Below, in pieces: positions 1 through 8,509 of a stretch of DNA of 8,509 nt; position 1 is the first letter of the stretch; each line of letters opens with the position of its first letter. The stretch lies in NCBI GenBank assembly GCA_017627975.1, contig JAGAFT010000218.1:1-8509 (forward strand). The letters are read 5' to 3'. The translations under genes were made by a program, and so were the position numbers. The notes beneath the pieces were generated by a model. It did no database searches. It was not told the origin of the DNA and saw only the letters and a list, made by a program, of their open reading frames with translations. The stretch comes from Oscillospiraceae bacterium. Its GTDB lineage: Bacteria; Bacillota_A; Clostridia; Oscillospirales; Oscillospiraceae.

Positions 1-199
1 AGCCGTCGATGCGGATGCTCCCGGCATCCGGCCGTTCCAGAAAATTGATGCATTGTACCAGCGTGGACTTGCCAGCGCCGGAATATCCGACAATCCCGTA
101 GACCTGACCTGCCTCGACCCGGATGTTCACATCTTCCAGTGCGATGACCTTTTTGTCCGGTGCGACGTAGGTCTTCGAGATGTGGCTGAGTTCAATCAT
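1..199 (-). CDS. metN: MetN, methionine ABC importer ATP-binding subunit (partial, N-terminal 66 codons)
   Basis: This is the start of the ATPase subunit of a MetNIQ-type importer, which couples ATP hydrolysis at the inner face of the membrane to uptake of methionine. The window holds only the first 66 residues; the rest lies beyond base 1. The translation starts MIELSHISKTY and contains the Walker A loop GYSGAGKST at residues 38-46, followed by CINFLERPDAGSI. The GYSGAGKSTL and INxLERP forms are typical of MetN rather than of other ABC ATPases. The ATG ends at 199. The best ribosome-binding site is AGGAG at 213-217, with a rather long 13-nt spacer. The gene lies just downstream of a terminator and a methionine-rich leader ORF, which independently supports a methionine role. 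The methionine specificity is inferred from family resemblance and this leader; metI and metQ would be expected further left. Confidence 0.9.
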   Translation of the reverse strand, partial: MIELSHISKTYVAPDKKVIALEDVNIRVEAGQVYGIVGYSGAGKSTLVQCINFLERPDAGSIRIDG

Positions 200-233
200 A
201 AAACCTGTCCAACTCCTGTCCTGTTCCGGCAAT

Positions 234-268
234 AAAAAAAGACCCGGACGCTCGCTCGCATCCAAGTC
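234..268 (-). terminator. Intrinsic terminator (attenuator) in the metN leader
   Basis: On the minus strand an 11-bp stem (5' arm at 258-268, 3' arm at 241-251, three G-U pairs, six-base loop at 252-257) is followed directly by seven T residues (234-240). This is a textbook Rho-independent terminator. It lies after a promoter and leader ORF but before metN, so its likely role is conditional termination of metN transcription. The 5' arm can also pair with a segment near the leader ribosome-binding site (410-421). Confidence 0.88.
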
Positions 269-291
269 CTCTTCTTGTCAGAATATTGAAA

Positions 292-306
292 ATCTGATTT
301 TCAGAT
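292..306 (-). other. Small hairpin between leader stop codon and terminator
   Basis: ATCTGA and TCAGAT flank a three-base loop (6-bp stem), starting 6 nt after the leader-peptide stop. The TCAGA part of its downstream arm (293-297 as RNA) could instead pair with TCTGA at 278-282, so two exclusive small hairpins are possible just before the terminator. It may act as a pause or alternative-structure segment of the attenuator. The pairing is seen in the sequence; the role is inferred. Confidence 0.4.
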
Positions 307-312
307 GGCTTA

Positions 313-408
313 TCAATCGGGCGAAGCGTAATTCTGCGCGCGCATCATCATGCACATGCCGCACATGTGCATCGCCATCATCATGAAGCTGTGACGGTTG
401 TTACGCAT
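313..408 (-). CDS. Methionine-rich leader peptide (31 aa) of the metN attenuator
   Basis: This short ORF of 31 codons plus TGA begins MRNNRHSF and then has methionine at positions 9, 10, 11, 13, 15, 18, 20, 21 and 22. Nine of 14 successive codons are therefore ATG, interspersed with Ala, His, Cys, Gly and Cys, and ten of the 31 residues are Met. It ends RAQNYASPD. A strong purine-rich ribosome-binding site (AGGAAGGAG, 421-429) lies 12 nt before the ATG, and a consensus promoter lies about 30 nt upstream. The stop codon is 44 nt before the terminator stem. The peptide is probably not functional itself. By analogy with the trp and his leader peptides, the codons would stall the ribosome when charged Met-tRNA is scarce and so change folding of the downstream RNA. 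Direct evidence is the ORF composition and the setting; the attenuation mechanism is inferred. Confidence 0.85.
   Translation of the reverse strand: MRNNRHSFMMMAMHMCGMCMMMRAQNYASPD
350..372 (-). other. Hairpin formed by the Met-codon stretch of the leader
   Basis: ATGCACATG and CATGTGCAT form a perfect 9-bp stem around a 5-nt loop, inside codons 13-20 of the leader ORF. A further outer stem is possible between GCGTAA (codons 2-4) and TTACGC (codons 26-28). The Met-codon region would thus fold when untranslated and be opened by a translating or stalled ribosome. Part of the symmetry simply follows from ATG/CAT-rich codons, so the regulatory role is uncertain. Confidence 0.4.
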
Positions 409-409
409 C

Positions 410-421
410 AGAACTGGACGC
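410..421 (-). promoter_or_regulatory. Candidate antiterminator segment next to the leader ribosome-binding site
   Basis: As RNA this 12-nt stretch reads GCGUCCAGUUCU and lies between the leader Shine-Dalgarno sequence and its ATG. It resembles the terminator 3' arm (GCGUCCGGGUC) and can pair with the terminator 5' arm: eight contiguous pairs (414-421 with 258-265), one mismatch, then three more pairs. That pairing excludes the terminator stem. The complementarity is seen directly; use as an antiterminator is inferred. Confidence 0.5.
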
Positions 422-429
422 TCCTTCCT
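421..429 (-). promoter_or_regulatory. Ribosome-binding site of the leader peptide
   Basis: AGGAAGGAG on the minus strand is a strong Shine-Dalgarno match, 12 nt before the leader ATG. It shows that the methionine-rich ORF is meant to be translated and is not a chance reading frame. Confidence 0.75.
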
Positions 430-441
430 GTTGATGGGCTG

Positions 442-470
442 ATTATATGCCCGTGTGATTTGTTTGTCAA
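442..470 (-). promoter_or_regulatory. Consensus sigma-70/A promoter of the metN leader
   Basis: TTGACA (465-470) and TATAAT (442-447) are separated by exactly 17 bp on the minus strand, a perfect match to the vegetative sigma consensus. The expected start of transcription is the A near 435, giving a leader of about 235 nt ahead of metN. A promoter this strong fits control exerted after initiation, by the attenuator, rather than by an activator. Confidence 0.9.
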
Positions 471-554: not shown

Positions 555-582
555 AGAATAATAATTCTAGAATAATAATTCT
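555..582. repeat. Two tandem copies of a 14-bp palindromic repeat
   Basis: AGAATAATAATTCT occurs twice, back to back and without mismatch (555-568, 569-582). Each copy is an inverted repeat (AGAAT/ATTCT around AATA). It abuts the hairpin at 582-620 and lies about 85 bp upstream of the metN-leader -35 box. It could be a binding site for a dimeric regulator, part of a small repeat element, or the AT-rich tail of the adjacent terminator. I do not recognise it as a known operator. Confidence 0.6.
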
Positions 583-620
583 CATGCTCTCTCCCCGCCT
601 CCGGCGGGGAGAGAGCATGA
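582..620 (-). terminator. Long perfect hairpin downstream of sbcC, probable terminator
   Basis: An 18-bp perfect stem, GC-rich in its inner half, with a three-base loop (600-602), starts 41 bp after the sbcC stop. Read in the sbcC direction it is followed by an AT-rich stretch (GAATTATTATTC) rather than an uninterrupted T run, so terminator activity is plausible but not textbook. It separates sbcC from the metN-leader promoter. The symmetry is long and exact for a plain terminator, so a repeat-element origin is also possible. Confidence 0.6.
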
Positions 621-661: not shown

Positions 662-3424
662 TCAGATGATTTCGGCGTGGCTGCCACCGCTCCGGTCTTT
701 CTTCACGACGATCTGCCGGTCGATCCGCTCCTTCAGCTCCGAAACGTGAGAGATGATTCCAACGAGGCGGTTGCTCTCCGTCAGGCCCGAGAGCGCCTTC
801 ATTGCCTGCTCCAGCGATTCTTCGTCCAGGGAGCCGAAGCCCTCGTCCACGAACATGGTGTCGAGCTGGATGCCGCCCGCCGAGGACTGGATCTCATCGG
901 AGAGCCCGAGCGCCAGGGAGAGCGACGCCTTGAAGGATTCTCCGCCCGAGAGGGTCTTGACGCTGCGCTCCGTGCCGTTAAAGTGGTCGATCACGCTGAG
1001 CTCCAGGCCGCTCTGGGATCTCAGGTTATCCGCGACATCCCGCCGTTTCAGATCATACTGTCCGCCCGACATGATGAAGAATCTTGTGTTCGCCCGGTTG
1101 ATCATCCGGTCAAAGAAGCTTGTCTGGACATAGGTCTCCAGCATGATCCGCTCTTTGCCCGATACGGTTCCGTTGGCGGTGTCGGAGAGCGCCTTCACCC
1201 AGGTGAGTTTCTTTTCCAGCTGCTCAAGCTCCGCTCCCTGTTTCAGGATGCCGCTCCGGGCAGTGTGATTGGCGTTCAGCCGCAGCAGAACATCCGCGTT
1301 CAGCTGGCTCAGCTCCTGCTTCTCTTTGCTGAGCCGCTCGCTCTCTTCCCGCAGCGCCTCTCGGTCAGGTTTCTCTGCCGATGAGAGCTGTTCTGTCAGC
1401 TGGGTGACACGGCCTTCCAGCGTCATGCAGACCGTTTTTCCCCGGCGCTGCGCTTCCTCAGCCCGGGTCAAGGCCTCTCGGATCCGCTGCTGGGCACCTT
1501 TCAATCTCGCGAGTTCTCGGTTTGCCTCCCCTTTGCTCGGGAAGGGCAGTTTCTCTTCTGTCTGCCGCAGGAGCTCGTCCCACTGTCGAATCTTCGTCTC
1601 GCAGGCCGTGATTCGTTCCCTGCAGCGCTGCATGCTCTCCTGCAGGCGCTGCTGCTCCTTCTCCGTCTGGGGGATCAGCTCCTCAAGTTCCGCTTTGCGC
1701 TTGATCTTCTTTTCTTCTGCTGTAACAGCTGCACTCAGCTCCGCATAGCGCTCCCGAAGGGCCTTTCGCTCGCTTTCCGCTGCTTCCCGGATTTGTTCCG
1801 GTGGCAGTTCCGGCCAGAGTTCTGCCGCCTTCTGGCTCAGTTCCTTTCGGGTCGCCTCTTCCTGCCCGAGGAGGCTGCCCGCTTCGCTGCTGGCCAGTTC
1901 CGCAGTTCGGCGGCACCGGTCTGCTTCCATCTTTGCCTGTTTCAGCTGGGTCTCCGTCGGTGCAGCTTCGGACAGCTCCGCCGGATGAGGATGTACCGTC
2001 GCGCCGCAGACCGGGCAGGCCTCTCCCTCTCTCAGTGTCTGCGCAAGGATACCCGCCTGCTCGCTCAGGAACGCGCGATTCATGTCATCATAGCGCTGCT
2101 GCGTCAGCTCATACTTTTTCTGAGCAGCAAGATACTTCAGCTGAGCCTCTTCCAGGTTTGCCTTCAGGCGATCCGCCGCATCAAGCTTCTTCAGCACGTC
2201 TGCAATCTGCTTTCCTTTTGCTTCGACACTGTCCTTTTCCCGCAGCAGCGCTTCCCGCTGTGCTCCCGCGGCCTCCAATGTCTTCCGTTCGGCCTGCAGC
2301 TGCTCTGTCTGCTGGGTATTGGTATTCAGCGCCTCACTGTCCTTCTCCCGTGCCTTCTTTTCCGCTATCAGCTGAAGCTCGGCATTCCTCCGTTCGAGAA
2401 GGGTCTTCTCTCTGGCGTCATATTCCGGAAGCAGTGTATCCAGGGCGGCTGCCTCTGCGGCGAGTCGATCAGCCTCAGGCTGTCTGGCCGCGGCCTCGTC
2501 AAAAGCGGCGTCCAGAGCTTTCTGTCCTTCCGCTGCCTTCTCCAGCTCTGCCCTGGTTTTCTCCAGCGCCTGTTCCGCCTTCTCCAGTTCTTCTGCCCGA
2601 CCGAGCCGTGTGTTCAGTACGTTAAGTTCGGCATCCAGGCCGCTGAGCCTGTCGCCGCACCGGTCGAGAAGTTCCGTATCTTTTCCGATGAGCCGGTCAA
2701 GCAGCTCCATCACCTCTTCCGTCGGGAGCTCTCCCGCCTGGGCTTTCCGGATCTTCTCGGCATACAGATCGCCGTCGGCGCACTTCATGCCGCTGATATA
2801 CTGGCGGATGCTTCGCCGTTCGTTTTCACATTCACGGGAAAGCTCCCGGACGTCGTCCTTCAGTCTCTCCTGAAAGACCTGGTAGTAGCCGGTATGGAAG
2901 ATCTCGCGGAAAATCGCCTGGCGGTCTTTCGTCTCTGCCAGCAGCAGGCGCAGGAAGTCTCCCTGGGCGATCATGGCGATCTGGGAAAACTGGTTCCGGT
3001 CGATGCCGAGAATGTTCTGGATGGCCGCGGTCACTTCCCTCTGCTTTGTCACGCTTCTGCCGTCGGGGCAGATGAGCTCGGCTTCCGCTGCCTTTTTCGT
3101 CGTGCCGGTTCCGCGGCTTTTTGCCTTCTCGTACTCCGGCTTTCTCGTCACGGTATACTGCTTCCCCGCGTAGGAGAAGGTCAGTGTCACGAAGGTCGGC
3201 CGGTCCGGGTCGGCGTACTTGGAACGCAGCATGGAGGCCTCGCGGTTGTTTCCGCTGGCCTCTCCGTACAGGGCGAATGTGATCGCGTCGAAAATGGTCG
3301 TCTTCCCCGCGCCGGTATCGCCGGTGATGAGGTACAGTCCGCTCTTCCCCAGCTTCTCAAAGTCGATGGTCTCCTCCCCCGCGTAGGGGCCGAAGGCCGA
3401 CATGATCAGATTCAGCGGTCTCAT
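662..3424 (-). CDS. sbcC: SbcC, ATPase subunit of the SbcCD exonuclease (Rad50-like)
   Basis: This is the SMC-like ATPase of the SbcCD complex, which with SbcD opens and trims DNA hairpins, palindromes and blocked double-strand ends. The 920-residue product has the full family layout. The N-terminal half of the ATPase domain carries Walker A (GDTGAGKTT, 35-43). A long charged Glu/Lys/Ala-rich coiled coil follows, interrupted near the middle by the zinc hook CPVCG (Cys470, Cys473). A second coiled-coil arm leads to the C-terminal half, with signature LSGGES (825-830), Walker B TMFVDE (856-861), D-loop SLDEE and the switch histidine His893. Family members are roughly 900-1200 residues long, so this is a complete, slightly short example. 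The ATG overlaps the sbcD stop by 4 bp, which implies translational coupling. All key residues are present. Confidence 0.97.
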   Translation of the reverse strand: MRPLNLIMSAFGPYAGEETIDFEKLGKSGLYLITGDTGAGKTTIFDAITFALYGEASGNNREASMLRSKYADPDRPTFVTLTFSYAGKQYTVTRKPEYEKAKSRGTGTTKKAAEAELICPDGRSVTKQREVTAAIQNILGIDRNQFSQIAMIAQGDFLRLLLAETKDRQAIFREIFHTGYYQVFQERLKDDVRELSRECENERRSIRQYISGMKCADGDLYAEKIRKAQAGELPTEEVMELLDRLIGKDTELLDRCGDRLSGLDAELNVLNTRLGRAEELEKAEQALEKTRAELEKAAEGQKALDAAFDEAAARQPEADRLAAEAAALDTLLPEYDAREKTLLERRNAELQLIAEKKAREKDSEALNTNTQQTEQLQAERKTLEAAGAQREALLREKDSVEAKGKQIADVLKKLDAADRLKANLEEAQLKYLAAQKKYELTQQRYDDMNRAFLSEQAGILAQTLREGEACPVCGATVHPHPAELSEAAPTETQLKQAKMEADRCRRTAELASSEAGSLLGQEEATRKELSQKAAELWPELPPEQIREAAESERKALRERYAELSAAVTAEEKKIKRKAELEELIPQTEKEQQRLQESMQRCRERITACETKIRQWDELLRQTEEKLPFPSKGEANRELARLKGAQQRIREALTRAEEAQRRGKTVCMTLEGRVTQLTEQLSSAEKPDREALREESERLSKEKQELSQLNADVLLRLNANHTARSGILKQGAELEQLEKKLTWVKALSDTANGTVSGKERIMLETYVQTSFFDRMINRANTRFFIMSGGQYDLKRRDVADNLRSQSGLELSVIDHFNGTERSVKTLSGGESFKASLSLALGLSDEIQSSAGGIQLDTMFVDEGFGSLDEESLEQAMKALSGLTESNRLVGIISHVSELKERIDRQIVVKKDRSGGSHAEII

Positions 3425-4557
3425 GTTCTCTCCTCCCAGATGTCCTCAATCAGCGCCGTGACATAAGCCGTCTGTTCTTCCGAAAGCGGAGTTCCGTTCT
3501 GTTTTTCATACAGCTCGCCGAAGAGTTCCAGCGGGCTCTTCCGCTCCACTTCCTCCGCGCCTCCGACCAGGTTCATGCTTCTGGTCCGCTGGTTGTCATA
3601 GCTCAGCTTCATCACGTTCGGATAAATCACCCGGAGCCGGTTCATGGCTTCCGGAATCTCTTCCGCGTCCGTCAGAATGATGTGGAGATAGTCCTCCACC
3701 GCCGTCCCGATGTAGTTCGGTCTCGCCGTCAGCTCCATATAGCTGCCGCGGAGGACTCTCATGTCGTGCTTCGGAATCAGGGGAACTGTCCGGATCTGCA
3801 GCGTCCCTTTCTCCGCCAGTTCGGCCACCGTCACCGACTTGATATGCTCGGCTTCCGAGAAAGAGTACTTCAGCGGTGTCCCGCAGTAGCGGATTCTCTC
3901 GGAATCGATGTTCTGCGGGCCATGGATGTGTCCGAGCGCCACATAGTCAAAGTCGTCAAAGACCTGCGCATCCACATTGTCAGATCCGCCCACCGAGGTC
4001 TCTTCCGATTCCGAGCGCGTCGCCCCCGTCACAAACTGGTGCGTCACCAGCACGTTCCGGGCCGAGCGGTCCACGCCCATCTTCCGGATCGCCGTGCCCA
4101 CGGCATCGGTGTAGCTCTCGATTTCCTCATCCGGGAAGCAGCGGCGCACATGGGTCGGCTTGATGAACGGCAGCATGTAGATGCAGACCGGTCCGTACGG
4201 ATCCTCCAGCACAACCGGCTCCACCTCCCCGTGATATACCGGGGACAGATGCACGCCGCTCCGGTCCAGGAGGCGGGAGCCGAACGCGATTCTCTCCGGA
4301 GAATCGTGGTTCCCGCTGATGACGAAGATCTGCAGTTTTCTTTTTGCGAGATTGTACAGGAAGTCGTCAAACAGCTGCACGGCTTCGGCCGGCGGAACAG
4401 ACTTGTCGTAAATGTCGCCCGCCAGGATCACCGCATCGGGTTTCTCCCGGTCGATGATGTCCAGGATTTTTTTCAGAATATCCCGCTGGTCTTCCAGCAT
4501 GCTGAATTCGTTGACCCGCTTTCCCAGATGCAGGTCCGAGAGATGAATCAGTTTCAA
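3421..4557 (-). CDS. sbcD: SbcD, nuclease subunit of the SbcCD exonuclease (Mre11-like)
   Basis: This is the calcineurin-like metallo-nuclease that cuts DNA in partnership with SbcC. From the TTG at 4557 the product is 378 residues and starts MKLIHLSDLHLGKRVNEFS, the classic family N-terminus. Metal-binding motifs appear in order: Asp8-x-His10, GD (Asp48), GNHD (Asn83-His84), VTHQ (His173) and GHIH (His210, His212). A C-terminal capping region follows. The start is a TTG preceded by GGAAAGGAAG nine bases upstream. The frame stays open to an upstream start at 4710, but the extra 51 residues are basic and low in complexity, lie inside the preceding gene and have no counterpart in the family, so I rejected them. 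The gene follows the FMN oxidase gene by 26 bp and overlaps sbcC by 4 bp. Confidence 0.95.
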   Translation of the reverse strand: MKLIHLSDLHLGKRVNEFSMLEDQRDILKKILDIIDREKPDAVILAGDIYDKSVPPAEAVQLFDDFLYNLAKRKLQIFVISGNHDSPERIAFGSRLLDRSGVHLSPVYHGEVEPVVLEDPYGPVCIYMLPFIKPTHVRRCFPDEEIESYTDAVGTAIRKMGVDRSARNVLVTHQFVTGATRSESEETSVGGSDNVDAQVFDDFDYVALGHIHGPQNIDSERIRYCGTPLKYSFSEAEHIKSVTVAELAEKGTLQIRTVPLIPKHDMRVLRGSYMELTARPNYIGTAVEDYLHIILTDAEEIPEAMNRLRVIYPNVMKLSYDNQRTRSMNLVGGAEEVERKSPLELFGELYEKQNGTPLSEEQTAYVTALIEDIWEERT

Positions 4558-4583
4558 GTCGCAGAACTTCCTTTCCTGATTTT

Positions 4584-5591
4584 TCAGCGTACCATGTCCG
4601 GGCAGAGATCCGCGAGCTTTCGCGCTCCGACCATGTACATGGCCCCGGTAAACTCGTCGCGCAGCTTTTCGACATAGGTCTTGATCCCTTCCGCGTCTCC
4701 GCCGAACCACGCCACCGCAAAGGGTCTGCAGATCATGACCGCGTCCGCGCCGAGGGCGAGGGCCTTCACCATGTCCGATCCGTGCCGGATCCCGCCGTCC
4801 ACGATAATCTTTGTCTGGCCCTTCACCGCCCGAGCAATCTCGGGGAGCACCTCTGCCGTCGAGGGGACATCCGGCAGCACGCGGCCGCCGTGGTTGGAGA
4901 CGATGATGCCGTCCGCCCCGGCCTCCACGGCCTTCAGCGCCGCCTTTGCCGTCATGATGCCTTTTATCAGAAACGGTTTCTTCGTGCAGGACTTCAGGAA
5001 CTTCAGATCCTCCACAGTCTTCGAGCCCGGACCCTCGCCCTTGAATCTCCAGTGGCTGAGTCCGGCGCTGTCCACCACCACACAGGTCGCCAGCGTTCCG
5101 CTCGACTCAAAGCGTTCGATCTTCTCGCAGATCTGCGCATTCGGCAGGGGGTTGAACACCGGGATCGCACAGTCCGGATGTTCCGCAACGGCCTCCAGCG
5201 CACCCGCGACGGTCTTCTCGACGATGCCGTCCCCGAAGCAGTCGACGATACCGGTTTCGGCACAGGCGCGGATCATCGCGGCGTTGAACCCGACGGTAAC
5301 GTCTTCCTTGCTGTACTGGGTCATGGAGCCGATGGGTCCCGTCAGGATCGGCAGGCTGAAGCGGTGTCCGAACAGGTCCATCCCGGTGTCGACCGCCGTG
5401 TCGGGCACAAAGGTGTCGACGTTCAGGCGGATCGCCTTCCAGCCCTTCCAGTTTTCGTGTGCGCCGTTTCCGGGCGCCTTGGATCCCGGACCGGGTAGGG
5501 TATTCCCGCAGCCGAGTCCGTTGCACTCCGGACATACCTTGCAGTTGAGAATGGTCTTTCTTGCGTTTTCAAGTACTTCCTGATAAGTCAT
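4584..5591 (-). CDS. FMN-dependent alpha-hydroxy-acid oxidase family protein with N-terminal Cys cluster
   Basis: This is a cytoplasmic TIM-barrel flavoprotein of the glycolate/lactate oxidase family, members of which oxidise 2-hydroxy acids with FMN. From the ATG at 5591 it is 335 residues. Seen in order: a Cys-rich N-terminus (Cys17, Cys20, Cys23, Cys28), PILTGPIGSM (81-90), a lysine at 210 in FLIKG, the active-site motif SNHGGR (232-237, His234 the presumed base), and the FMN-phosphate loop VDGGIRHGSD followed by KALALGADAV (264-285). The tyrosine-bearing segment usual in canonical oxidases is not evident; the region reads VFNPLPN, so substrate and reaction are uncertain. An in-frame GTG lies at 5600, but AAGG (5601-5604) is well placed for the ATG at 5591. 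The gene begins 5 bp after the ATPase stop and ends 26 bp before sbcD, so it is probably cotranscribed. I cannot name a substrate. Confidence 0.85.
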   Translation of the reverse strand: MTYQEVLENARKTILNCKVCPECNGLGCGNTLPGPGSKAPGNGAHENWKGWKAIRLNVDTFVPDTAVDTGMDLFGHRFSLPILTGPIGSMTQYSKEDVTVGFNAAMIRACAETGIVDCFGDGIVEKTVAGALEAVAEHPDCAIPVFNPLPNAQICEKIERFESSGTLATCVVVDSAGLSHWRFKGEGPGSKTVEDLKFLKSCTKKPFLIKGIMTAKAALKAVEAGADGIIVSNHGGRVLPDVPSTAEVLPEIARAVKGQTKIIVDGGIRHGSDMVKALALGADAVMICRPFAVAWFGGDAEGIKTYVEKLRDEFTGAMYMVGARKLADLCPDMVR

Positions 5592-5596
5592 GATCA

Positions 5597-6907
5597 TCAC
5601 CCTTTTTCAATAATACTTGGCAGGCGTACTGCAGCATATAGCGGGATGTTTGTCAGCCAATCCTGCTCTCTGTAATCGGACATTGAAATCCGATAAGCTT
5701 TTGCATCAGGATAATCCAGGCAAAACTGCCGAAGGGATTTTGAACGCAGATTTTCCTCTGCCTTCACTTCGATCGGTGCAAGGAAGTTTTCACCCTGCAT
5801 AAGGAAATCAAGTTCCAGTTTGGAGCTCTCGCTGTCATAATAGAAAATACCTGTTTCCGCGCTGCAGATCAGCTGTTCATATACATATTGCTCCGTGAAG
5901 GTCCCCCTGTATTCCTCGAAGACATTGCTTTTCAGAAGTATTTCGGAAATCGGTGCGTCAACCTGTGCACCCATCAAACCATGATCGACAGTAAACAGTT
6001 TAAAAGCAGAGAAATCTTCATAGAACTTCAACGGCAGTCCGGCTTTTCTTACTCTGGGCACCTTATAAACAATTCCCGCATCTACCAGCCATTCGATCGC
6101 GAGTTCGAAATCCTTTGCGCGAGCCCCTTTCTGTATATCAGCGTAGACGAACTTTTTGTTGCTCTTTGCAAGCTGCTGCGGAATGGAATTCAATACCTGA
6201 TGAATTCTTCCCAGGATCTGAGGATCTGCATGTTTCGAAATATCCAGCGCATAGTCTGAAAGAATTTGTTTTTGAATGTTACGTAAAGACTTATAGTCTT
6301 TACCGTCAACTGCTCCTTGGACTACTTCAGGCATACCGCCTGTGAAATAGTACTCCCTCAATGAATCAACAAAAACAGATCGGAGGCTTGCAAGATCTGC
6401 CAGCGGATCCATCATCAAGCGCACATAACTGCTCTCCCCGAGTCTGGCACGTACGAATTCCGCGAACGAAAGAGGATACAGCGTCAGTTCGTCCACTTTA
6501 CCCACCGGAAAAGAAACGCCTTTATGGATGGCCAGTCCCAGCAATGAACCCGCAACGACAATATGATACTGTGGTGCATCCTCGCAAAAATATTTTAAAG
6601 CCGCAAGTGCTTTCGGTGCATCTCCCACCTCATCGATAAAGATGAGCGTTCTTCCCGGCACAATTGTCTGTCCGCTTAGCACCTCCATGTCGGAGATGAT
6701 ACGGTCAATTCGAAATCCGCGCTCGAATATCTCACGTACACGAGGATCTTTATCTGCATTCAGCACCACAAAACTATCAAATTCGTGGTTCCCGAAATCC
6801 TTGATAAGATATGTTTTTCCAACCTGACGTGCCCCTTTGACAACAAGAGGTTTTCGATCAGGTTTTTCTTTCCATTCCAGCAATTTCTGATAAAGATCAC
6901 GTTGCAT
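5597..6907 (-). CDS. AAA ATPase with DUF4143 domain (AAA_14 family)
   Basis: This is a predicted 436-residue ATPase of a large, poorly characterised prokaryotic family in which an AAA domain is joined to DUF4143. The N-terminus MQRDLYQKLLEWK is followed by Walker A GARQVGKT (25-32), Walker B TLIFIDEV (87-94), a sensor-like VVAGS (117-121) and ELTLYPLSFAEF (140-151), typical of the family. The C-terminal half carries a nuclease-like signature, LELDF (Asp367) followed by IEVK (Glu380, Lys382), resembling the PD-(D/E)xK fold; activity is not shown. The frame is open to 6997, but that extension runs across the promoter at 6966-6994. The ATG at 6907 has GGGGGA at 6916-6921 and is the family start. 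The gene looks more AT-rich than its neighbours, which hints at transfer. Its cellular role is unknown; some relatives are suggested to act in mobile-element or toxin-like contexts, but nothing here proves this. Confidence 0.88.
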   Translation of the reverse strand: MQRDLYQKLLEWKEKPDRKPLVVKGARQVGKTYLIKDFGNHEFDSFVVLNADKDPRVREIFERGFRIDRIISDMEVLSGQTIVPGRTLIFIDEVGDAPKALAALKYFCEDAPQYHIVVAGSLLGLAIHKGVSFPVGKVDELTLYPLSFAEFVRARLGESSYVRLMMDPLADLASLRSVFVDSLREYYFTGGMPEVVQGAVDGKDYKSLRNIQKQILSDYALDISKHADPQILGRIHQVLNSIPQQLAKSNKKFVYADIQKGARAKDFELAIEWLVDAGIVYKVPRVRKAGLPLKFYEDFSAFKLFTVDHGLMGAQVDAPISEILLKSNVFEEYRGTFTEQYVYEQLICSAETGIFYYDSESSKLELDFLMQGENFLAPIEVKAEENLRSKSLRQFCLDYPDAKAYRISMSDYREQDWLTNIPLYAAVRLPSIIEKG

Positions 6908-6965
6908 AGCAGCTTTCCCCCAGTTTTCCACCCTTTTATTCGTATGGTTTAAAGTAGGCAATTTC

Positions 6966-6994
6966 ATTATATCGTTCGCCGGTGAGCATGTCAA
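6966..6994 (-). promoter_or_regulatory. Consensus promoter of the ATPase-oxidase-sbcDC gene set
   Basis: TTGACA (6989-6994) and TATAAT (6966-6971) are spaced by exactly 17 bp on the minus strand. Transcription should start near 6959, giving a 5' leader of about 50 nt before the ATPase ATG at 6907. The promoter overlaps the longer reading frame to 6997, which settles the ATPase start. Given the tight spacing downstream it may also drive the oxidase, sbcD and sbcC. Confidence 0.85.
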
Positions 6995-6997
6995 CAT

Positions 6998-7247: not shown

Positions 7248-8509
7248 TTATGATTGTATCGTTTCTCTGAGTTTCTCCCAGACCTTCACCATGGCAAAGG
7301 TATCCAGTCCGCAGTATTTTAACAGGTTTTCCCGGCAGACCGGCAGCTCTTCTTCCGTCATGTTCTCCATCGCGGCAAACGCGGCCGAAGCCTCTGTGCC
7401 GTTGTGCACGCCTTCGAGATTGTGATAGTTCAGCGCCGGATCATCCGGGAACAGCGCCGGAAGCACATACTTGATGGAATAGGAGCCTTCCATCGCCCTG
7501 GTGTAGTACTGTTTCTTCTGAAACGGTACCATCAGGTCCTGAATATGGTCATGGATATCCATCAGATGGTCCGAGAGGTCCGGATACAGCCCGGCCAATT
7601 CCCGGATCCTGGTTTTTTCAAAAGTCATATTATAAGCCAGGGTGCAGACGCCTCTCGGAATATCCCGGCAGAGCTGCTCGGCAAGCTTCCGCCTCGGGTC
7701 TTCTCCCGGCCAGGCCAGATACTCCTTATGCTGCAGAGCCTTCCCCTCCCCTTCGATCAGGTGCAGAGAATACTGAAAAACAATCTGATCATAGGGGCTG
7801 GAGTTTTCATACAGAGGCACCGCCGGCTGGAAAGACTCGAAGTCCAGGAAATACAGCGGATAAGAAAGGCCGGAGAGGAAGCTGCGTATGCTTGCTCTGT
7901 CAATCTGATCGGGCAGCTCCGCCAGGGCATGGGAAATCTGAAGGCGCTGGCCGTCGTTCAGCTTCGCCCCCGACGCCAATTCCTCAAATGAAATGACTCC
8001 CTGATTATAATACTTGAACTTGGTCCTCTTCTGCATGCCGGAGACATCAAAGACGTTGGGCACGGGAAGATGTTCCGTGCAGTGATGCCAGAATCCGCAG
8101 TCATACGGATCGGAGCAGTGCGGTCCGATATCGTCTCCCGGTTCATCCAGATTCAGGATCGTCTGTTTCAGAGAAGCAGTTCTGGACTCAACATCGCCCT
8201 GCATGGCCCGCACCTGATCGGTCAGGTCCTCGATTTTGAAGAGCTTCTCAATCTCCAGTTCTTTTCCGCGCACATAACTGCGGTCCAGATGGACCAGGCA
8301 GACTTTCGTGACGGTAAAGCCGAGATGCTCCAGCACATACATCTGGTAGGCCACATCATGGTAATAGATCTCATGTACCGAGGTGGAGCTCTTTACTTCA
8401 TAGAGCTCTGCTTTTCCGTCCGGCAGATTCCGCAGAATATCCACACTGCAGAACATTCCGTCATAGGCGAAAGATGCTTCCGCGATGTTTTCCACACCAT
8501 CTGCAAGCA
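7248..8509 (-). CDS. DUF2779 nuclease: Cas4/RecB-like domain fused to DnaQ-like exonuclease (5' partial)
   Basis: The frame is open to the right edge, so the N-terminus is missing; about 419 residues are visible. Numbering here starts at the GTG at 8495, which is probably not the true start because the frame continues upstream as LADG. The first part has RecB/Cas4-type nuclease motifs: VDIL (Asp19), LYEVKSST (Glu33, Lys35) and AYQMY (Gln51). These are followed by Cys127, Cys133 and Cys139 in C-x5-C-x5-C spacing, resembling the C-terminal cysteines of the Cas4/AddB iron-sulphur cluster; the fourth would lie upstream, outside the window. The second part is the DUF2779 region with an RNase H/DnaQ-like layout: FLDFES (Asp218, Glu220), AYNMTFE (287-293), MDIHD (Asp313) and YCGLD (Asp398). 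It would be expected to degrade DNA or RNA ends; substrate and pathway are unknown. No CRISPR array or cas gene is visible nearby. Confidence 0.82.
   Translation of the reverse strand, partial: LADGVENIAEASFAYDGMFCSVDILRNLPDGKAELYEVKSSTSVHEIYYHDVAYQMYVLEHLGFTVTKVCLVHLDRSYVRGKELEIEKLFKIEDLTDQVRAMQGDVESRTASLKQTILNLDEPGDDIGPHCSDPYDCGFWHHCTEHLPVPNVFDVSGMQKRTKFKYYNQGVISFEELASGAKLNDGQRLQISHALAELPDQIDRASIRSFLSGLSYPLYFLDFESFQPAVPLYENSSPYDQIVFQYSLHLIEGEGKALQHKEYLAWPGEDPRRKLAEQLCRDIPRGVCTLAYNMTFEKTRIRELAGLYPDLSDHLMDIHDHIQDLMVPFQKKQYYTRAMEGSYSIKYVLPALFPDDPALNYHNLEGVHNGTEASAAFAAMENMTEEELPVCRENLLKYCGLDTFAMVKVWEKLRETIQS

What the first reader, a model, noticed from the sequence alone, without database searches (positions are those of the whole stretch)
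199..470. Methionine-rich leader peptide and terminator: apparent ribosome-mediated attenuation of a methionine importer
A perfect consensus promoter, strong Shine-Dalgarno sequence, 31-codon ORF with 10 Met (nine in 14 codons) and a strong intrinsic terminator precede metN in that order. Bacillota met genes are usually described as controlled by SAM riboswitches or methionine T-boxes, neither of which I can find here. Leader-peptide attenuation is well known for trp, his, leu, ilv, thr and phe genes, but a methionine-codon version would be unusual and perhaps undescribed. Methionine poses a special case: starvation lowers elongator Met-tRNA and also the initiator fMet-tRNA, so initiation and elongation on the leader could both report supply.
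Basis: partly seen in the sequence, partly recalled or inferred. Interest (0 to 1): 0.9.

Follow-up and report, generated by a model that had tools for sequence, protein, structure and literature searches.

The report
Methionine-counting switch before methionine importer
A gut bacterium seems to decide whether to make its methionine importer by letting a ribosome try to read a short run of methionine codons: if methionine is scarce the ribosome should stall and the importer gene be read, and related bacteria keep the same arrangement.

Summary
On the minus strand a promoter, Shine-Dalgarno sequence, 31-codon ORF with 10 Met and intrinsic terminator precede metN, without any Rfam hit. I gathered 66 more Met-rich leader loci from relatives; most precede a metN-like gene, four metQ, four metY. 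In the genus of the closest relative 37 of 61 genomes match. Swap tests show the ORF tail co-varying with two partners: the terminator (antiterminator) and the leader's own RBS/start region (protector helix); both replicate on 24 leaders fetched afterwards. Some other metN genes of the family have a T-box instead.

Best reading: ribosome-mediated attenuation sensing charged tRNA-Met, a new variant of a known kind. Met leaders were predicted before (C. jejuni metBA, S. lividans metNIQ), so 'undescribed' is too strong; my nine paper searches showed none with a terminator in Clostridia and no RBS-tail helix. Not shown: any response to methionine. In equilibrium folding the terminator wins in nearly every modelled state, so antitermination would have to be kinetic.

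The parts
442..470 (-). Promoter: TTGACA, 17 nt, TATAAT
   Evidence: 12 of 12; the same order read in L001 and L002
421..428 (-). Shine-Dalgarno GGAAGGAG of the leader ORF
   Evidence: read; conserved block in alignment A5
313..408 (-). Leader ORF, 31 codons plus TGA, 10 Met
   Evidence: relatives
343..384 (-). Met run, codons 9-22 (MMMAMHMCGMCMMM), the proposed control codons
   Evidence: chance control; the invariant columns of A4 (28 rows) are all Met
350..372 (-). Possible Met-core hairpin ATGCACATG..CATGTGCAT
   Evidence: in the window's MFE fold; not more stable than codon-order shuffles in the window (z 0.01), so weak
398..433 (-). 5' arm of protector helix P1 (predicted transcript 5' end, RBS, start codon)
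313..348 (-). 3' arm of protector helix P1 = ORF tail
319..329 (-). Core of the proposed antiterminator 5' strand (ACGCTTCGCCC), 13 nt beyond the last Met codon
   Evidence: by co-variation across leaders
248..263 (-). Proposed antiterminator 3' strand (terminator 5' arm, loop and start of 3' arm)
234..270 (-). Intrinsic terminator
   Evidence: too long a loop for the pattern scan to list it; a terminator in 24 of 24 leaders of the later set
2..199 (-). metN, 5' part (the window ends inside it)
   Evidence: 92% identical to the start of metN in L001, which is followed by metI, metQ and an amidohydrolase

Best explanation
A ribosome-mediated transcription attenuator that reads charged elongator tRNA-Met and controls metN (by synteny with L001, metNIQ). 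When methionine is ample the ribosome runs through the Met codons to the stop codon, covers the ORF tail, and the terminator forms. When Met-tRNA is short the ribosome stalls in the Met run; the tail, whose core begins 13 nt beyond the last Met codon, stays free and pairs with the terminator's 5' arm and loop as RNA polymerase makes them, so metN is transcribed. When the leader is not translated at all, the tail pairs with the leader's own RBS and start region (P1), which leaves the terminator free to form. Shown by sequence: parts, order, conservation, co-variation of the tail with the terminator and with the RBS. Inferred: the stalling, the direction of the response, and that a stalled ribosome keeps P1 from forming (by holding its arms apart, or through a queued ribosome on the RBS), which is the least secure step.
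For: Leader and terminator precede metN in L001, before a second metN of the same genome (L083) and in diverged relatives. 19 of the 21 metN rows most like the L084 query (itself included) carry a Met-rich leader; 28 of 90 rows examined overall. 37 of 61 genomes of the genus match the profile. Four class-level leaders precede metY-like genes (two tested, both over the TIGR01326 cut-off). Swap tests, discovery set: antiterminator z -4.1 (1 of 20000) and P1 z -5.9 (0 of 20000) in 24 leaders. Later set, 21 non-redundant leaders: antiterminator z -4.0, P1 z -5.1 (0 of 20000 each), controls z -0.5 to -1.1. Scanning 24-nt windows against the terminator, z is -5.3 for the one ending 10 nt before the ORF end, -2.7 for the last one, and between -1.7 and +0.8 elsewhere. 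Last core Met to stop: median 14 codons, quartiles 14 and 15, n=51. In a transcript cut before the terminator's 3' arm, mean tail pairing is 0.29 (stall mid-run), 0.34 (stall at last Met) and 0.08 (ribosome at stop), n=37. T-boxes before other metN genes of the family serve the same logic by another device (recalled).
Against: No expression data. On the full-length RNA the terminator dominates in the stalled state too (0.82 or more, except L105 in both stalls and L108 at the last Met). The truncated-transcript contrast exceeds 0.1 in only 23 of 37 leaders. A run-length test of the antiterminator is only modest (462 and 540 of 20000). With a 54-nt tail, reversed and shuffled tails still reach z -1.9 and -2.0, so part of that signal is composition. 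In the second sequence group (9 leaders, near relatives among them) the antiterminator is weak, z -2.1. In one of two alignment subsets P1 shows no both-side change, although 76% of cells pair against 30-45% when slid. The map also gives a Met-run by ORF-end signal (z -4.2) that this model does not explain. One ribosome stalled in the Met run does not cover the RBS arm of P1. 62 of 90 metN rows had no such leader in the 450-600 nt searched. The metY leaders are poorer in Met (5 in 14 codons), and L219 is atypical (72 codons).
Confidence: 0.82

Rival explanations
1. Nascent-peptide arrest: the Met-rich peptide itself stalls the ribosome, perhaps with methionine or SAM bound, rather than empty Met codons.
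For: The core MxMxM(C)xMCM is recognisable in many genomes of the family.
Against: Leaders of the second group (such as MTHGYGMMMRGMDMAMMPMP) share little with it but Met; the conserved C-terminal residues (RAQK..SPCF) are explained by RNA pairing of the tail.
Confidence: 0.07
2. The attenuator senses cysteine or general sulfur supply as well as, or instead of, methionine.
For: Cys is 93 of 318 non-Met core residues against 71 of 1225 in the flanks of 61 leaders.
Against: Leaders without core Cys exist (L108, L211, L213, L216); 90 of 93 core Cys codons are TGC and 223 of 318 non-Met core codons end in C, which would also follow if they serve RNA pairing between CATG blocks.
Confidence: 0.15
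3. The leader mainly reports initiation: low fMet-tRNA or any block of initiation lets P1 form and terminates, so the RBS-tail helix is the true switch and the Met run only modulates it.
For: P1 is the strongest co-varying pairing after the terminator stem (z -7.5 among 190 window pairs; later set z -5.1).
Against: It would turn the importer off when methionine is short, and it leaves the Met run unexplained.
Confidence: 0.06
4. A Met/His/Cys-rich metal-binding small protein that happens to lie before metN.
For: The window's core reads MHMCGMCM.
Against: His and Cys are not kept (L108, L211); a terminator and two co-varying helices tie the ORF to metN, and in relatives to metQ or metY.
Confidence: 0.03
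5. An undetected T-box or SAM riboswitch controls metN and the ORF is incidental.
For: SAM-I riboswitches and T-boxes occur in the family.
Against: No Rfam hit in the window or in 15 related leader loci; the predicted leader RNA of about 200 nt is largely taken up by ORF, P1 and terminator.
Confidence: 0.01

Closest known systems
Streptomyces lividans metL leader before metNIQ (PMC8079986, passages read)
   Same: Short Met-containing ORF before the methionine importer, called an attenuator; it too has a Met-Cys core (CMCRRMC)
   Different: Leaderless transcript, three Met with the start, and the authors state that a typical Rho-independent terminator is missing; another phylum
Campylobacter jejuni MetL before metBA (PMC3847290, passages read; Ribo-seq support in PMC11955535, passages read)
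   Same: Met-codon leader peptide on a short RNA that ends just after the stop codon; the same proposed logic
   Different: 20 aa with 3 Met, before biosynthetic genes, reported from C. jejuni, C. coli and C. doylei only; no sequence relation tested here
Classical trp/his/leu leader-peptide attenuators (recalled)
   Same: Control codons, and protector, antiterminator and terminator as mutually exclusive helices
   Different: Methionine as signal; the protector arm is the leader's own RBS and start region rather than the control-codon segment
Histidine leader peptides in bacilli (PMC2965389, passages read)
   Same: A leader peptide in place of a T-box in Bacillota
   Different: Histidine; hisS/hisZ genes
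T-box (RF00230) before metN
   Same: Found before other metN genes of this family (9 of 60 loci scanned); signal tRNA-Met charging presumed, specifier codon not checked
   Different: tRNA is bound directly; no ORF (recalled)

Membership tests
Ribosome-mediated (leader-peptide) transcription attenuator | Promoter, RBS and short ORF upstream of the controlled gene | tested here: met
   relatives
Ribosome-mediated (leader-peptide) transcription attenuator | Run of control codons for the amino acid that the downstream genes supply | tested here: met
   9 of 14 codons Met; chance control; downstream metN, metQ or metY (metN by Walker A motif only)
Ribosome-mediated (leader-peptide) transcription attenuator | Intrinsic terminator between ORF and gene | tested here: met
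   24 of 24 later leaders
Ribosome-mediated (leader-peptide) transcription attenuator | Antiterminator that excludes the terminator | tested here: met
   co-variation of ORF tail with terminator in two sets, weak in the 9-leader group; equilibrium folding does not favour it
Ribosome-mediated (leader-peptide) transcription attenuator | Stop codon placed so that a terminating ribosome masks the antiterminator strand | tested here: met
   window core 319-329 lies 4-16 nt before the stop codon (313-315); last core Met to stop median 14 codons; ribosome footprint recalled
Ribosome-mediated (leader-peptide) transcription attenuator | Expression rises on starvation for the amino acid and depends on leader translation | not testable with these tools
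   needs an experiment
T-box | Rfam RF00230 match | tested here: not met
   by contrast 9 of 60 leaderless metN loci match upstream of metN
SAM riboswitch | Match to a SAM riboswitch model | tested here: not met
   the SAM-I hits of G001 and G176 lie before metK
Nascent-chain arrest peptide | Conserved peptide sequence beyond the control residues | tested here: not met
   only Met columns are invariant in A4 (28 rows); tail residues follow RNA pairing

The most novel reading that the evidence does not exclude
A methionine-specific attenuator class of Clostridia in which the leader's own RBS and start codon form one arm of the switch, so that a single RNA reads both initiation (fMet-tRNA) and elongation (Met-tRNA) and is decided by one ribosome; it stands in for the methionine T-box in part of the family and also serves metY.
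Probability: 0.35. Interest if true: 0.75.

Novelty: new variant of a known kind. Interest (0 to 1): 0.62.

Why it matters
It gives methionine, the one amino acid that also starts proteins, a well-supported leader-peptide attenuator in Clostridia, with dozens of natural variants. Family members have a T-box, this leader, or neither identified before the same gene, so the exchange between two tRNA-Met sensors could be followed. The RBS-tail helix makes it possible to ask whether attenuators also gate their own reloading.

Tried and rejected
Viral contigs: no relative. The 78 more distant metN loci (L003-L080, mostly Bacilli) show no ORF of this Met density (best counts within 600 nt, density). 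Leader hits rejected on inspection: L085-L090 and L103, L106, L107; the weaker hits (L109 onward) were only scanned by script, which gave L110 and L115. ORFs with 5 Met in L157, L173, L195 and the distant one in L139 were taken as chance. L220-L222 hold no Met run; L126 was not opened; nine of the genus matches had no locus and were not opened. L250 (contig edge) and L247 (no start with an RBS called) were left out of the tests, as were L229 and L235 as repeats of L002 and L097. Non-redundant sets drop seven near relatives or three. Some upstream stretches were short (L133 257 nt, L131 408, L169 97, L192 375). The Met-core hairpin as a main element: mean z -1.04 (se 0.11, n=51) against codon-order shuffles, 8 below p 0.05, but 0.01 in the window, so kept only as a possibility. 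Overlapping windows in the map are prone to artefact and were not used. The first parse of L157-L216 failed on a motif and was redone by position. The pair count used 23 of the 28 rows of A5 (L002, L244, L084, L096 and L136 left out), split in two groups because the RBS arm shifts by one base; groups and registers were chosen by eye after seeing the duplexes.

Full report
What is there. The window (8509 nt) ends inside metN on its minus strand. Reading 5' to 3' on that strand: a 12-of-12 sigma-70-type promoter (470-442), a Shine-Dalgarno sequence (428-421), a 31-codon ORF (408-313) with ten Met, nine of them in codons 9-22, a spacer, a 12-bp terminator stem with a T run (270-234), and metN from 199. 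No Rfam family matches the window, nor 190-520 at E up to 1, nor the 15 related leader loci scanned with the window.

More than chance. In 1.10 Mb of DNA fetched by then, 42,535 open stretches of at least 14 codons were scanned. 43 reached 7 Met in 14 codons: 41 are leaders already listed, the other two (L110, L115) proved to be leaders as well. Overlapping loci are counted more than once and the set is enriched for leaders; the useful number is that nothing else exceeded 6 (six such stretches).

Relatives. No genome is held for the window itself. The nearest relative in genome contigs is L001, an Oscillospiraceae metagenome-assembled genome from roe deer abomasum (metN start 92% identical), with the same promoter, leader (MRTNRHSFMMMAMHMCSMCMMMRAQNSASPD), terminator and metN, followed by metI, metQ and an amidohydrolase (MetN, MetI and MetQ are the best NCBIfam matches but lie below the curated cut-offs). 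The same genome has a second metN with nearly the same leader and a changed terminator (L083). L002 (68%) and L084 carry diverged versions.

Spread. Profile search of 400 genomes of the family: 30 at E up to 0.1; the hits of 14 of them are real by inspection. Order sample: 3 of 295 at E up to 0.01: G001, one new real leader before metQ (G485), and one not opened. Class sample: 7 of 245 at E up to 0.05: G001; G827 (two places), G749 and G716 with leaders before metY-like genes (L217 and L219 pass the TIGR01326 cut-off, the other two were not tested); three without a Met run. The metY leaders are the weaker cases: E 3e-4 to 0.03, 5 Met in 14 codons, a hairpin with a T run in three, while the ORF of L219 runs through that place. 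Genus of the closest relative: 37 of 61 at E up to 0.01. Of the 28 loci L224-L251, 26 show a MetN-type Walker A motif downstream; L245 runs off its contig after 354 nt and L250 is a fragment. By my count this makes 67 leader loci with the window: 37 in the discovery set, 24 in the later set, L110, L115, L217, L218, L219 and L223; the first 61 have 60 distinct peptides. MetQ of L110 and L115 is by reading, of L099 and L125 by NCBIfam below cut-off.

Census of metN. MetN of L084 matched 97 of 200 family genomes at E up to 1e-60, 107 rows. I looked upstream of 90 rows; the weakest 17 were left out, one of which, the window-like metN of G001, has a leader. 28 of 90 have a Met-rich leader, among them 19 of the 21 most similar (the query included); 9 of the 28 are of other sequence types. 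Of the 62 without, 60 were scanned with Rfam: 9 have a T-box upstream of metN at gathering score (the hits in L152 and L155 lie elsewhere), and 6 more carry TGGTACCACG within about 210 nt (T-box motif recalled). For the rest no device was identified; some metN genes lie inside operons (in G104 the leader is before metQ). The SAM-I riboswitches of G001 and G176 lie before metK.

Conservation pattern. In 28 aligned leaders the invariant columns are all Met, the start included. In 61 leaders lengths run from 26 to 43 codons and Met counts from 6 to 12. The distance from last core Met to stop is 14 codons at the median, quartiles 14 and 15 (n=51).

Pairings. I tested pairing by swapping partners: if two segments co-evolve, the duplex energy of own pairs should beat that of partners taken from other leaders. 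Over 190 window pairs in 30 non-redundant leaders, the terminator stem scores z -16 (a positive control); next is the RBS/start region with the ORF tail, z -7.5. Tail with terminator halves scores -3.1 to -3.5 there; against the whole terminator, the window ending 10 nt before the ORF end scores z -5.3. One search also shows a Met-run by ORF-end signal (z -4.2), which I cannot explain. In separate groups: P1 z -5.9 (24 leaders) and -3.9 (9 leaders); antiterminator z -4.1 and -2.1; reversed-sequence controls, run in the larger group only, between -1.2 and +0.5. The 24 genus-level leaders were fetched after the hypothesis was formed, though some are close kin of discovery leaders: 24 of 24 have a terminator; in 21 non-redundant ones P1 has z -5.1 and antiterminator -4.0, controls -0.5 to -1.1. 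Weaker or contrary: the run-length test and the residual z near -2 of reversed and shuffled 54-nt tails. Examples, partly by eye, of tails changed together with their partner: GCTTCGC with GCGAGC in the window (one T bulged) and GCTTCAC with GTGAGC in L002 and L244; GCTGTC with GACAGC in L100; TCCGCTCACC with GGTGAAAGGAGA in L245, with a changed terminator. On 23 of the 28 rows of alignment A5 the P1 core pairs in 92% of cells with both-side changes in 4 of 8 pairs (11 leaders; slid controls 33-48%), and in 76% with none (12 leaders; slid 30-45%). The conserved C-terminal residues (RAQK..SPCF) are thus best read as RNA constraint.

How it probably works. Free RNA of the window folds as P1, a Met-core hairpin and terminator (MFE -79.8, z -4.9): the untranslated leader should terminate. 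A ribosome at the stop codon covers the tail: terminator. A ribosome held at the Met run leaves the tail free for the antiterminator; in the window the tail core begins 13 nt beyond the last Met codon. On RNA cut before the terminator's 3' arm, mean tail pairing is 0.29 (stall mid-run), 0.34 (last Met) and 0.08 (stop), with a contrast above 0.1 in 23 of 37 leaders. Against this: on the full-length RNA the terminator nearly always wins, so the antiterminator must act while the RNA is being made; and a single stalled ribosome does not cover the RBS arm, so how P1 is kept open is inferred (steric separation, or a second ribosome).

Literature. Nine searches of the held open-access library. Found: S. 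lividans metL before metNIQ (PMC8079986, passages); C. jejuni MetL before metBA (PMC3847290, passages), with translation support and a further Met-rich sORF before a D-methionine transport gene (PMC11955535, passages); histidine leader peptides in bacilli and the exchange of T-box and leader peptide (PMC2965389, passages). PMC5794164 (leucine-rich attenuator peptide, S. aureus) and PMC9413887 were seen only as search listings. None of these searches showed a Met leader with terminator in Clostridia or an RBS-tail helix; most subscription papers are not covered. The trp/his mechanism is recalled.

Verdict. A conserved, co-varying methionine leader-peptide attenuator, not yet tested at the bench: a known kind of device, a new variant in signal, lineage and protector helix.

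Noticed in passing
L217, L218, L219, L223, L125 (after the leader hairpin): A second small conserved ORF (like MSF.FEKLVR.NYRFGRM; MIRLIEELVRANFRFGRT in L125) lies between the leader hairpin and metY or metQ; L099 and L110 have other short ORFs there, around a TGTGTC..GACACA-like hairpin (by eye).
   Followed up: partly
L125, L217, S. lividans metL (PMC8079986): Leaders of different phyla share a Met-Cys pattern (MCMCGRMCMAF, MCMWICQMC, CMCRRMCAF); common descent was not tested.
   Followed up: no
window 343-384 and relatives: Cys is strongly enriched in the Met core (93 of 318 non-Met residues, 90 of 93 as TGC): cysteine sensing or CATG-based RNA pairing, unresolved.
   Followed up: partly
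L219, leader ORF: The leader ORF runs on to 72 codons through the place where its relatives have stop codon and terminator; a weaker hairpin follows.
   Followed up: partly
window 582-620, minus strand: 18-bp perfect inverted repeat (TCATGCTCTCTCCCCGCC..) followed by an AT-rich stretch, between sbcC and the leader promoter; probably the terminator of the sbcDC operon.
   Followed up: no
window 6966-6994, minus strand: The only other 12-of-12 promoter, at the 5' end of an AAA_14/DUF4143 ORF (5597-6997).
   Followed up: no
window 662-5600 and 7248-8507, minus strand: Neighbours by Pfam: SbcC, SbcD, an FMN-dependent dehydrogenase, and a DUF2779 protein.
   Followed up: no
L167 70-148, minus strand: NiCo riboswitch just over the gathering threshold (37.3 against 37 bits) near a metN-like gene that also has a T-box-like motif.
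   Followed up: no
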